Of a stretch of DNA of 64,000 nt, positions 3,844 through 7,838 are shown one piece after another. This DNA comes from Meloidogyne chitwoodi (taxonomy: Eukaryota; Nematoda; Chromadorea; Rhabditida; Meloidogynidae): NCBI GenBank assembly GCA_015183035.1, contig JACZZP010000018.1, positions 1,302,001 to 1,366,000 of the forward strand. The letters are read 5' to 3'. A program made the translations under genes and the position numbers. The notes under the pieces were generated by a model. That model was not told the DNA's origin and searched no databases. It saw only the letters and a program-made list of their open reading frames with translations. How positions within the stretch are numbered: position 1 is the first letter of the stretch; each line of letters begins with the position of its first letter.

Positions 3844-6800
3844 ATGAAATTAACTATTAGGCGTCGATCAACAATATTTAAATTGCTATTATTAATTCCC
3901 ACTGTATGGCTACTTGCTGTTTTATTTTTTAATAAACCTAATTATGTGGTATTATTTTATTTTTATTATTTTAAAAAGCCTTAGGTTGGCCAAAAAAAAT
4001 TAATTTTTAAAATTTAAGCAAATTGTCAATGAAAAACCTGTCAAAAATGCCAGGTTGCAGAAGGTTTTGGAAGTTAAAGAAGAAGAAAATATTCAACAGA
4101 TTAAAGGGTATACATTTTTTAATAAAATTTGACTTTTTTAAAATTAATAATTTTAGATTTGGCCCTCCATTGGCAGCAAAAGAAAAATCTGATGAGGATA
4201 AAAGTGCATTAAATCATGAAGTTATTTTTTATTAAATTTTAGGTAATTTTAAATAAATATATTTATTTAGATTGGCAATATTCCAAAACCAAAAAAGTTA
4301 TTTTTTGATGCTCAATCTCCAATTTATAAGAGAGGTGACCCTAATCAAGAGGGTGAAGGAGGGAAAGCAGTCAAAGTGGATAAAGAGGTTTTTTAATTTT
4401 TTTAAATTTAATTTTATATTTTTATTATTTAAAGAAACTTTCACCGGAAGAGAAGAAAAAATATGACGAAGGTTTTGTTAAAAATGCCTTTAATCAATAC
4501 GCCTCTGATATGATCTCAATTCACCGTTCACTTCCTTCTATTTCAGACGAAGAGTATTTTTATATTTTATTAAATTTTAAAAATAATAATAATATTTTCT
4601 ATTAGTTGCAAAACAGAAAAATATTCCGATGATTTACCTGACTCTTCAGTTGTAATTTGTTTTCACAATGAGGCTTGGTCTGTATTACTTAGAACAGTAC
4701 ATAGTGTTATTGAAAGAACTCCAGATAAATTATTAAAAGAGGTTATTTTGGTAGATGATTTTTCTGACATGGAACATTTGAAAAAACCATTGGAGGAATA
4801 TATGGCACAATTTCCTAAAGTATTTTTTAATTTTTAATTTTATTTGAATAAAAATTATTTTAAGGTCAAGGTTATGCATTTGGAAAAAAGAGAAGGTTTG
4901 ATTAGAGCTCGTTTACGTGGTGCTACAATAGCAACTGGAAAAGTGATTACTTATTTAGATAGTCATTGTGAATGTATGGAAGGTTAGAAAATTAATTAGA
5001 TTTTAATTTTAAAATAAATTTTATTTTTAGGATGGCTTGAGCCACTTCTTGCTCGAATAAAAAAAGATCCAACAAATGTAGTTTGTCCAGTTATTGATGT
5101 TATAGATGATAATACATTTGAATATCATTATTCTAAAGCATTCTTTACAAATGTTGGAGGTTTTTTTTTAAAGAATATTTTAAAAATTAAAAATTTTTTT
5201 TAAGGTTTTGATTGGTCATTGCAATTTAATTGGCATCCTATTCCTGAAAGAGACAGAAAAAATCGTCGAAATATTGATCCTGTTCAGTCTCCAACAATGG
5301 TATTTTAAATTTATTTTTTTTCTAATTATTAATTTTAAAGAAAATTTCAGAAAATAAATTTTTTTTTAAAATAAAAAATTGGAAGAAAGCGATTAAAAAT
5401 ATTAAAAATAAAATTGAAGATAAAAAGGCGAAAAAGTGTTTTAAAATAGAGAATATAATTAAATGATAAATAATTTAAAAGTTAAAATTAAGGCTGGAGG
5501 TTTATTTTCTATCGATCGTTCCTATTTTGAAAAACTTGGAACTTATGATCCAGGATTTGATATTTGGGGAGGAGAAAATTTGGAACTTTCTTTTAAGGTT
5601 TTTCTTTTTTCTTTAATTTAAATTTAAAAAAAAAAGATTTGGATGTGTGGTGGCCGTTTAGAAATTGTTCCTTGTTCACATGTTGGACATATTTTCAGAA
5701 AACGATCACCTTACAAATGGAGGACTGGTGTAAATGTTCTTAAAAGGAATTCTGTTCGTTTAGCAGAAGTTTGGTTAGATGAATATAAAGAATATTATTA
5801 TGAAAGAATTAATAATCAATTGGGTGATTTTGGTGATATTTCTGGTCGAAAACAACTTAGAGAGGTTTTTTTTAATTTTATTAGTAGAATAGGGGATGTT
5901 CTTTTGTGTAGATTATTAAGAAAAAGAAAGATTAGACTTTAAAAAAAAATTTTTTTTAACTTATAATCAAAGAATACACTATTATTTATTTAATATTTTT
6001 GAACATTTTTTCGATTTTTATTAAATAATATTTTCAAATTCTTTTATTTAAATTTAGCATTATTTTATATTTAAATTTTATTAATTTTTTATTTTTTAAA
6101 GAAATTACAATGTAAATCGTTCAAATGGTATTTAAACAATATTTTCCCTGAATTATTTGTTCCTGGTGAGGCTGTAGCAAAAGGAGAGGTTTGTACATTT
6201 AAAAATTAATTTTTAAATGCTTTGCGCTTAAAAAATGTTTTTTGCTTGAATTCTTCTCGAGTTTTTTAGTTATAAATATTAGTTTTGTTAGTTTTTTTCT
6301 TTGCATTAATTTTAGCTTATTTTTGATTTTTTTGAATTTTAAAGACATTTTATTTTTTTATATTTTTGCATTTTTTTTGCATAAAATTTTTCACAGTCGA
6401 GGCTTATCATTTTTAAGGCTTATTTTTATTTTTCTAGATTCGAAATGCTGCAATAGAAACCAATGCGCGTTGCCTCGATTGTGCGATAGGAAGACACGAG
6501 AAGGACAAGCCAATAAAATTATGGCCTTGCCATGGCCAGGGCGGAAATCAAGTAAATATTTGCTTTGCTTTTATTTCAGATTCGTAATGGGGTTAGTGCC
6601 TTAGAAGAAGGTAGTCCTCCTCAATCTTGTGTTGATTCTGCTGTTGGGGATGAAGATAATAATAATAAACCTGTTGTGCCTTATCCTTGCCATGAGTAAG
6701 ATCTTCTAAATTTAATATTTTTTTAATTCAAAAATATATATTTATGTCATTTGCTAAAAAAAGAAACAATTAATTCTAAATATATTTAGATAAGTATTTC

Positions 6801-7838
6801 TTAATAAAATTTAGAAATATCTCTAATTTTTGTAAAATATTTTTCTAAAAAATATTTTGGCAATGACATATATTTTTGAAATTAACTCTAAAAAGCTATT
6901 AAATATTTTTTTCAAAAATATTTTTATATTTAAGGCAAGGCGGGAATCAGGTAAAAAAAACAAAATCTTCTTCAAATTGGAAAAGAGTCAAAAATAATAA
7001 TTATTTTTTTTTTAAATAAAAAGAGTCAATTAAATATGCTTGGGAGTAATTATTTTTAAAAAATAATAATTGGTGAAAGAGTAGCAAAAGCTTTATTATT
7101 TGCTTGCTTTTATAAAATTAAAAGTATTAGAGGAATATAATTATCTAAAAATACTAAAATAGATTCGTTGTTCTGGAGGTGGTTCAAAAATATGTATTGA
7201 TTGGGCTAATAAAAGAAAACATTCTCGAAAATTGGGTCTTTATTGGTGTCATAATCAAGGGGGTAATCAGGTTATTTTTTATAAATAAAATAAAAGACAA
7301 TTAATAATAAAGTTTTTGCTACTCAAGGTAAGTATTTTAAATTTTTAGTTAAAATTGGGATCTTCTTTTCCATTTCTTGAGACCCAAAAATTCATTGGAA
7401 TTTTTTTTTATGTTTACTTTTATATTAATTTATTTTTATTTTTTTAAAGTATTGGATGCTAAGTAAAGATGGAGAAATTCGTAGAGATGAATCTTGTATT
7501 GATTATGCTGGTAAAGATGTTATTATATTTCCTTGTCATAGTCAGGTTTTTATTTAATTTAAAAAAATTTTATAATTTTATTTATAGAAAGGAAATCAAG
7601 AATGGCGTTATGATCATAATGTTTATTTATTTTTAAATTAATTTTAATATTTTTTAATTTTTAGAAACACCAATTATTTCATGTAATTTCTAATAAATGT
7701 TTGGAAATGAGCAAAGATGCAAGTAAATTATTAATGAATTCTTGTGATACTTCTAATCTTTATCAACATTGGACATTTAAAGATTATAAAGGAAATAAAG
7801 ATAATAATAATAAAGCTGTTGGTGGTAAAGGGCTTTGA
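3844..7838 (+). CDS. gly-5: Polypeptide N-acetylgalactosaminyltransferase (GLY-5/GALNT type)
   Basis: Golgi type II membrane enzyme (GT27) that starts mucin-type O-glycosylation by moving GalNAc from UDP-GalNAc to Ser/Thr. The ATG at 3844 gives a short basic cytosolic tail (MKLTIRRR) and one signal-anchor helix. A stem follows, then the GT-A domain: the DSHCE metal-binding D-x-H motif (near 4965) and the Gal/GalNAc-T segment WGGENLELSFKIWMCGG (near 5565-5655). The C-terminus is a ricin-type beta-trefoil with QxW-like repeats ending in YQHWTF; stop TGA at 7836-7838. The first lectin repeat is encoded by three alternative exons (see 6438-7270), matching the splice-variant design known for C. 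elegans gly-5, which is why that paralogue is chosen. A GALNT1/13-like relative remains possible. About 19 short exons; no inactivating change seen. Confidence 0.93.
6438..7270 (+). other. Three alternative lectin exons incl. a 16-nt microexon
   Basis: Three successive, homologous, phase-0 cassettes encode the same part of the lectin domain. Cassette A (6438-6551, 114 nt) begins IRNAAIE and ends PCHGQGGNQ. Cassette B is split into B1 (6580-6695, 116 nt, beginning IRNGVSA) and a 16-nt microexon B2 (6935-6950), which joined give PCHEQGGNQ (132 nt in total). Cassette C (7163-7270, 108 nt) begins IRCSGGG and ends WCHNQGGNQ. All are flanked by AG/GT, and each can be followed in frame by the exon starting YWMLSKDG (near 7450). 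A normal GALNT lectin domain has only one such segment here, so mutually exclusive use is the natural reading. Splicing itself is inferred. Confidence 0.85.

What the first reader, a model, noticed from the sequence alone, without database searches (positions are those of the whole stretch)
6438..7270. Triplicated, phase-matched lectin exons with a 16-nt microexon in the GLY-5-type GalNAc-transferase
Seen: three cassettes (114, 132 and 108 nt), all in phase 0, each beginning IR and ending C-H-x-Q-G-G-N-Q, each able to join the same downstream exon. Cassette B needs a 16-nt microexon (6935-6950) to complete its GGNQ end. Known: C. elegans gly-5 makes splice variants that differ in the lectin region. 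Inference: one gene makes at least three enzymes with different sugar-recognition lobes; including two or three cassettes in one mRNA would also keep the frame.
Basis: partly seen in the sequence, partly recalled or inferred. Interest (0 to 1): 0.75.

Follow-up and report, generated by a model that had tools for sequence, protein, structure and literature searches.

The report
Three swappable lectin exons, nematode GalNAc-transferase
A roundworm gene for a sugar-attaching enzyme carries three interchangeable versions of one small exon, one of them finished by a tiny 16-base exon, so it can probably make three enzymes that differ in a charged loop; this arrangement is already known in outline from other worms and flies, but the tiny exon and the very tight spacing are unusual details.

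Summary
Window 3844-7838 (+) holds a complete gly-5/pgant9-type polypeptide GalNAc-transferase of a Meloidogyne-like nematode. Three phase-0 cassettes (A 6438-6551; B 6580-6695 plus microexon 6935-6950; C 7163-7270) each encode the alpha repeat of the lectin domain. The microexon is required: B alone stops at CHE*, and 6935 is the only acceptor that opens a short in-phase exon after B. The cassettes fall into three classes seen across nematodes, in the order A-B-C. All 36 transcript-type records among 121 homologues carry exactly one cassette, so mutually exclusive use is favoured over 'two or three in one mRNA'. The A-B gap (28 nt) is below the shortest of 25 constitutive introns (38 nt), which suggests steric exclusion of A+B. 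All three keep C-x-D, CH and GNQ; they differ in charge (+2, -5, +6), in the same + / - order as fly PGANT9A/B, a reported specificity switch. A 22-bp inverted repeat flanks C. Tandem gly-5 exons are already reported, so this is a new variant of a known kind: one mutually exclusive unit is a two-exon, non-triplet pair (116+16). No RNA from this species was available.

The parts
3844..3948 (+). exon 1 of the gly-5-type GalNAc-transferase (start codon, hydrophobic N-terminal stretch)
   Evidence: gene model with open frame and GT-AG junctions
4019..6188 (+). exons 2-12 (4019-4107, 4157-4220, 4271-4387, 4435-4553, 4606-4819, 4865-4982, 5031-5159, 5205-5299, 5493-5597, 5637-5864, 6102-6188): stem and catalytic domain up to VPGEAVAKGE
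6438..6551 (+). cassette A, 114 nt, lectin alpha repeat, net charge +2
   Evidence: groups with P0001
6552..6579 (+). 28-nt gap between A donor (GTAAAT) and B acceptor (TTTCAG), shorter than any of 25 constitutive introns; if retained it gives a stop in B
6580..6695 (+). cassette B main exon, 116 nt, donor GTAAGA; net charge of the completed cassette -5
6696..6934 (+). 239-nt intron between B and microexon, 13% GC, folds as a long hairpin
   Evidence: z -4.4, 0 of 200 shuffles; z -3.6; such hairpins are not rare in this window
6935..6950 (+). 16-nt microexon completing B (E|QGGNQ), donor GTAAAA
7079..7100 (+). left arm of 22-bp inverted repeat flanking exon C
7163..7270 (+). cassette C, 108 nt, net charge +6, acceptor AAAATAG, donor GTTATT
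   Evidence: class C clade 98/96
7303..7324 (+). right arm of the inverted repeat flanking exon C
7450..7545 (+). common exon 13 (lectin beta repeat), target of every cassette
7588..7838 (+). exons 14 (7588-7620) and 15 (7665-7838), end of lectin domain and stop codon

Best explanation
This is the gly-5 (pgant9-type) polypeptide GalNAc-transferase gene, with three tandem, homologous, mutually exclusive versions of the lectin alpha-repeat exon. One pre-mRNA yields isoform A, isoform B (B main exon always together with the 16-nt microexon) or isoform C. Shown: anatomy, phases, sequence classes, conservation, and one cassette per transcript-type record in relatives. Inferred: (1) A and B exclude each other because the 28-nt gap is too short for U1 at A's donor and U2AF/U2 at B's acceptor at once; retention of the gap or use of an internal acceptor of B leaves the frame stopped or shifted, so such A+B messages would be useless; (2) B and the microexon are locked together by reading frame, since either alone shifts it; (3) C, which has a weak-looking acceptor and is enclosed by a 22-bp stem, is skipped by default and used when the stem is open or bound; (4) the isoforms keep the GalNAc pocket but present a positive (A), negative (B) or strongly positive (C) loop and so prefer differently charged substrates, as proposed for PGANT9A/B.
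For: Gene model, phases and open frames. Microexon uniqueness. 36 of 36 records on contigs under 6 kb with uninterrupted reading frames have one cassette, while 26 of the 83 other parsed records have two or three pieces. P0018 (A) and P0038 (B) are 598/598 identical outside the cassette; gene models P0021 (A) and P0042 (C) 595/595. Class C is a supported clade of 12 rows (98/96); window A pairs with P0001 and window B with Meloidogyne enterolobii P0027, each 100/91. Order A-B-C in Necator P0010 and Syphacia P0015. 25 constitutive introns are 38-237 nt against 28 nt for A-B. GTAA donors: 3 of 4 cassette donors against 1 of 26 constitutive, Fisher p 0.004. Charges of the 68 different sequences I classed, window included: A +1 to +7 (23), B -6 to 0 (33), C +3 to +7 (12); C-x-D, CH and GNQ kept in all 68. 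C-flanking helix reached by 0 of 1000 shuffles. Charge switch in PGANT9A/B: PMC6115407 (passages).
Against: No RNA from this species was seen. Among close relatives only isoform A has a transcript-type record (P0001, organism not named, Meloidogyne-like by 581/621 identity to P0027); B is seen there only in gene models (P0002, P0027), and no Meloidogyne C was found; the window's C is the most diverged of the three (nearest 67%). The database is clustered at 90% identity, so isoforms and rare double-cassette forms may be hidden inside clusters. Several annotated proteins contain two or three full cassettes. The intron minimum rests on 25 introns of two genes. C-flanking repeat: weaker in other controls (duplex energy reached by 2 of 200 shuffles; whole-region fold z -1.97, 2 of 100), 5 of 635 equal-geometry placements in the window score as high, itself included, and it could be a mobile-element remnant. 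The charge classes were assigned by me partly from the same residues; the order-based test avoids this but rests mostly on gene models.
Confidence: 0.75

Rival explanations
1. Cassettes are combined: some mRNAs contain two or three alpha repeats, giving enzymes with an enlarged lectin domain.
For: Frame is kept in A+C, B+C, A+B and A+B+C; 26 of the 83 parsed records that are not transcript-type show two or three pieces.
Against: 0 of 36 transcript-type records do; the A-B gap is 28 nt; a fourth trefoil repeat is not known to me in solved GalNAc-transferases (recalled).
Confidence: 0.08
2. Only A (or A and C) is used; B with its distant 16-nt tail, or C, is a decaying copy.
For: Only isoform A has a transcript-type record among close relatives (P0001); C has a weak-looking acceptor, an IRC start and a long branch.
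Against: All three frames are open with intact motifs; B and C group with their class from other genera; transcript-type records that look nematode carry A in 6, B in 6 and C in 2 of 14; B has a TTTCAG acceptor and GTAAGA donor.
Confidence: 0.08
3. The inverted repeat around C (and the hairpin in the B intron) are remnants of mobile elements and play no part in splicing, or they promote back-splicing of C into a circular RNA.
For: Other long perfect inverted repeats occur in the window (e.g. 24152-24336 and 47329-47513); 21 of 213 windows have fold z <= -3.
Against: A genome search with 6951-7449 found besides itself only a 43-nt match near the e13 acceptor (that search skips very common words); the arms sit in both introns of one alternative exon.
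Confidence: 0.35
4. B is used as an alternative last exon: reading stops at CHE* in the retained intron, giving an enzyme without beta and gamma repeats.
For: In-frame TAA follows CHE directly; the intron contains an AATAAA (6803-6808).
Against: The 33 B-class sequences classed here end in GNQ and were cut out before a beta repeat; the microexon restores exactly that sequence.
Confidence: 0.04

Closest known systems
C. elegans gly-5 splice variants
   Same: Homologous gene (430/618); P0025 from C. elegans carries class A, and other Caenorhabditis records carry B and C; PMC9741552 lists gly-5 among genes with tandem duplicated exon substitutions (passages).
   Different: Whether C. elegans B is split by an intron, and its A-B spacing, could not be examined. 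That C. elegans makes three variants is recalled; no paper describing them was seen.
Drosophila pgant9 exon 8A/8B (PGANT9A/PGANT9B)
   Same: Best solved-structure match (6e4q, 6e4r); same alpha repeat swapped; positive versus negative loop (PMC6115407, passages).
   Different: Two cassettes, not three; common ancestry of the fly and worm B exons is not resolved by the 37-column tree.
C. elegans unc-32 exon 4a-4c cluster
   Same: Three mutually exclusive exons in a nematode gene (PMC3585155, title, abstract start and passages).
   Different: There UNC-75 is a reported regulator; here nothing is known, and one unit is a two-exon pair.
C. elegans microexons (PRP-40-dependent)
   Same: Length 16 nt, within the <= 27 nt definition (PMC8378409, abstract start and passages); flanked by introns over 200 nt.
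   Different: Here the microexon is the obligatory end of one cassette, not a free cassette exon; tissue and PRP-40 dependence unknown.
Mutually exclusive exons separated by too short a gap (steric interference)
   Same: A donor and B branch region very close; 57 human clusters were put in this class at < 50 bp donor-to-branch-point distance (PMC5740500, passages).
   Different: The whole A-B gap is 28 nt, and a third cassette lies outside the reach of this mechanism.

Membership tests
gly-5/PGANT9-type polypeptide GalNAc-transferase | catalytic domain plus C-terminal ricin-type lectin with high similarity to PGANT9 | tested here: met
   E 7e-230 to 6e4q over residues 113-616; close relatives P0001 and P0027 carry PF00535, PF02709, PF00652
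gly-5/PGANT9-type polypeptide GalNAc-transferase | enzyme activity | not testable with these tools
   needs assay
tandem duplicated, mutually exclusive exons | neighbouring homologous exons with equal phase that can replace each other | tested here: met
tandem duplicated, mutually exclusive exons | exactly one copy per mature mRNA in this species | not testable with these tools
   no RNA of this species; in relatives 36 of 36 transcript-type records
tandem duplicated, mutually exclusive exons | each exon a multiple of three (reported as 100% in C. elegans, PMC13247117, passages) | tested here: not met
   A and C are; B is 116 + 16, only the pair is a multiple of three
microexon (<= 27 nt) | length and proper splice sites | tested here: met
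   16 nt, acceptor TTTAAG, donor GTAAAA
microexon (<= 27 nt) | PRP-40-dependent, neuronal inclusion | not tested
   no expression data
steric-interference pair | gap below the splicing minimum | tested here: met
   A-B 28 nt against 38-237 nt for 25 introns of two genes; B-microexon 239 and microexon-C 212 nt are ordinary
docking-site/selector RNA structure cluster | one docking site pairing competitively with a selector for each exon | tested here: inconclusive
   of 7 intron pairs only u-C/C-e13 (2 of 200 shuffles) and e12-A/B-u (3 of 200) stand out; no common docking site seen
PGANT9-like charge switch | positive and negative versions of the alpha repeat | tested here: met
   +2 / -5 / +6 here, PGANT9A +6 and PGANT9B -4 over the same segment; class ranges; effect on substrates not tested

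The most novel reading that the evidence does not exclude
A three-way mutually exclusive switch in which one choice is a two-exon unit (116 + 16 nt, neither a multiple of three), kept apart from its upstream rival by a gap too short to splice and from its downstream rival by an RNA stem around C, and in which the + / - / + charge order of the lectin repeat has been kept across nematodes and matches the + / - order of arthropods, so that charge-based substrate switching in this enzyme would be as old as the moulting animals.
Probability: 0.3. Interest if true: 0.6.

Novelty: new variant of a known kind. Interest (0 to 1): 0.42.

Why it matters
It links the nematode gly-5 alternative exons, for which I found no functional account (listings), to a fly mechanism that has been examined (charge-switched substrate choice), and makes the idea directly testable: same gene type, same repeat, opposite charges. 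It also gives a compact natural case where reading frame, exon spacing and perhaps RNA structure each police a different pair of a three-exon choice, with a 16-nt exon of the kind that gene predictors can miss or mis-join.

Tried and rejected
Cassette combination as a normal product: set aside on 36 of 36 transcript-type records, with the clustering caveat. The B-u intron as a repeat-family insertion that split B: the genome search gave three short matches besides itself; I read 1200 of 3082 bases of one of these loci (L026), which does not include the matched stretch (1501-1582), and saw only AT-rich sequence; left open. B-u hairpin as a special element: z -4.4, but 21 of 213 windows reach z <= -3, so not stressed. 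Docking-site model: no support beyond the C-flanking stem. Splicing-factor motifs (FOX, CELF, ELAV, STAR, PTB, MBNL; recalled) around the cassettes: nothing telling, one TGTTGT inside B. Donor strength by matches to CAGGTAAGT: cassette donors 7, 5, 7, 7 against 4-6 for 26 constitutive; the U1 sequence of this species was not checked. Orthology of arthropod and nematode B exons: unresolved, 37 columns, bootstrap not settled. Species: Meloidogyne-like from protein identity (563/618 to P0001, 525/612 to M. enterolobii P0027); M. chitwoodi is only a recalled guess from 47.5 Mb in 30 contigs, and the passages of PMC12614787 that I saw do not give those figures. Literature on C. elegans gly-5 variants: the listings showed no paper describing them; Hagen and Nehrke 1998 is recalled, not seen. 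A search for GALNT13 lectin exons listed nothing useful. Structure prediction was not run: PGANT9A/B are solved, and spliced proteins are not among the sequences the tool says it takes.
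Full report
What is there. The + strand from 3844 to 7838 encodes a complete polypeptide GalNAc-transferase of 626 (C), 628 (A) or 634 (B) residues (1881, 1887 and 1905 nt with stop). All junctions are GT-AG and the frame is open. The best solved structures are Drosophila PGANT9A and PGANT9B (E 7e-230 and 5e-229). C. elegans GLY-5 (P0025) is 430/618 identical, Meloidogyne enterolobii P0027 525/612, and an unnamed record P0001 563/618. In the 47.5-Mb genome of 30 contigs, matches at 88-97% identity lie only at this locus; the other GalNAc-transferase-like places are at 38-66%. 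Upstream, 176-2930 holds an intact ABCE1-like gene that I used as an intron yardstick.

The cassettes. The cassettes correspond to the alpha repeat of the lectin trefoil, between VAKGE and YWMLSKDGE in the alignment to PGANT9. The microexon is real by sequence logic: B read on stops at CHE*; B joined to 7450 is out of frame; the microexon without B (alone, after A, or before C) is out of frame; and among AG...GT stretches of 4-60 nt in 6696-7162 only two continue B in phase and open, both starting at 6935. QGGNQ occurs three times in six frames of the whole window, once per cassette.

Relatives. Three protein searches gave 121 distinct proteins; one search listed 120 of 300 hits, so this is part of what exists. 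I cut out the stretch between the constant GE and the YWM-like motif: 119 of 121 parsed, P0002 and P0055 did not. I marked as transcript-type, by hand, the 36 records whose longest contig is under 6 kb; they have uninterrupted reading frames of 346-683 residues. All 36 have one cassette. Of the other 83 parsed, 57 have one, 23 two and 3 three pieces; four of the 57 (P0012, P0040, P0069, P0117) are two trimmed cassettes fused, both unparsed records also mix cassettes, and the third piece of P0044 is not a cassette. These mixed proteins are mostly from genome annotation, where a predictor may add every in-frame exon. The database is clustered at 90% identity, so minor forms may be hidden.

Two pairs are telling: P0018 and P0038 differ outside the cassette at 0 of 598 positions and carry A and B; P0021 and P0042 at 0 of 595 and carry A and C (the latter two are gene models). 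In a tree of 114 cassette sequences with 37 usable columns and an unsettled bootstrap, class C is a clade of 12 rows (98/96) that includes the window's C; the window's B joins M. enterolobii B (100/91) within a weakly supported group of 37 rows (83/92) that also holds a few rows I do not count as B (P0015_1, P0029_1, P0071_1, P0096_1); the window's A joins P0001 (100/91). Class A as a whole is not resolved. The order A-B-C is seen whole in models from Necator and Syphacia and in part in many others. The triplication is therefore older than this lineage.

How one cassette is chosen. Reading frame does not forbid combinations, except that it ties B to its microexon. Spacing probably forbids A+B: the gap is 28 nt, and 25 constitutive introns of this gene and ABCE1 measure 38-237 nt. 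If the gap is retained, the frame stops in B; of six internal AGs of B that could serve as acceptor, two stop within B and the other four read it in a wrong frame, and none leaves a length that is a multiple of three (coordinates). Close spacing as a cause of exclusion is reported in other animals (PMC5740500 and PMC3585155, passages). C is different: it is enclosed by a 22-bp helix with one G-U pair (7079-7100 / 7303-7324). Its contiguous-helix score is reached by 0 of 1000 shuffled intron pairs and by 5 of 635 equal-geometry placements in the window including its own; gapped duplex energy is less striking (2 of 200 shuffles), as is the fold of the whole region (z -1.97). Looping out of exons by stems is known (PMC6071210, passages), but here this is inference, and no docking site shared by all cassettes was found. 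Cassette donors carry GTAA in 3 of 4 cases against 1 of 26 constitutive donors (Fisher p 0.004), which suits exons that must compete.

What the choice does. I classed 68 different cassette sequences taken as nematode, the window's three included (23 A, 33 B, 12 C). Left out were the doubtful rows P0029, P0043, P0071 and P0096 (charges +4, -3, +3, +3), fused or over-long pieces, and identical repeats. All 68 keep C-x-D, CH and the final GNQ, so sugar binding is probably kept. Net charge separates them: A +1 to +7, B -6 to 0, C +3 to +7. Classes were assigned partly from the same residues, so I also used order alone: in 26 proteins with two or more pieces (nematode and arthropod), the first is more positive than the second in 21; the five exceptions (P0032, P0033, P0066, P0076, P0113) begin with B and go on to C. 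In flies the same repeat is swapped between a positive and a negative form, with effects on enzyme specificity and secretory granule shape (PMC6115407, title and passages). The most likely function is therefore a charge-dependent substrate switch rather than three sugar specificities; this step is inference by analogy.

Known and new. PMC9741552 (passages) lists gly-5 among genes with tandem duplicated exon substitutions in nematodes, together with GALNT13 and Pgant5; the fly Pgant5 variants differ in the catalytic domain (PMC12776162, passages), so pgant9 is the closer parallel. That C. elegans makes three variants is recalled. In C. elegans, mutually exclusive exons were reported as 100% triplet (PMC13247117, passages); B and its microexon depart from this as single exons, though not as a pair. 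The listings showed no account of a split cassette or a microexon in gly-5; they cover open-licence papers only and I did not open most of the listed papers.

Limits. No RNA of this species, no second nematode genome and no enzyme data were available. The intron yardstick rests on two genes. The identification of short-contig records as transcripts is inference from their uninterrupted frames.

Noticed in passing
176-2930: Intact 13-exon ABCE1-like gene just upstream on the same strand, 613 residues, introns 38-211 nt (gene name from recall of the family).
   Followed up: partly
6438-6551, 6580-6695, 6935-6950: Cassettes A and B and the microexon are richer in GC (47, 41 and 62%) than the 15 constant exons of the gene (25-37%) and C (35%). 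Unexplained; perhaps conserved exonic signals or codon constraint.
   Followed up: no
24152-24336 and 47329-47513: Two copies of a palindromic element with identical 33-bp perfect arms and the same spacing; 249 of 301 bases equal in the ungapped surroundings. Possibly a mobile element.
   Followed up: partly
30908-33290: CBP/p300-type acetyltransferase exons (RING_CBP-p300, PHD_P300, HAT_KAT11, zf-TAZ).
   Followed up: no
37243-37542: MutS domain III exon, a mismatch-repair homologue.
   Followed up: no
43930-44334: Elongation factor Tu domain 4 hit, probably an eIF5B/IF2-like gene (gene name inferred).
   Followed up: no
44739-44857: 5S rRNA gene on the minus strand (102 bits); tRNA-Ser(AGA) at 53171-53246.
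   Followed up: no
12072-12820: Open frames on both strands made of repeated peptide units, pointing to a DNA tandem repeat.
   Followed up: no
20001-24000: Very AT-rich stretch, 13.6% GC, against 20 and 24% in the 4-kb blocks on either side.
   Followed up: no
P0012, P0055, P0117, P0002, P0040 (relatives): Annotated proteins in several nematodes join cassettes with one side trimmed (e.g. A cut short before B), as if predictors could not place an A-B intron of normal length; a short A-B gap may be common in this group.
   Followed up: partly
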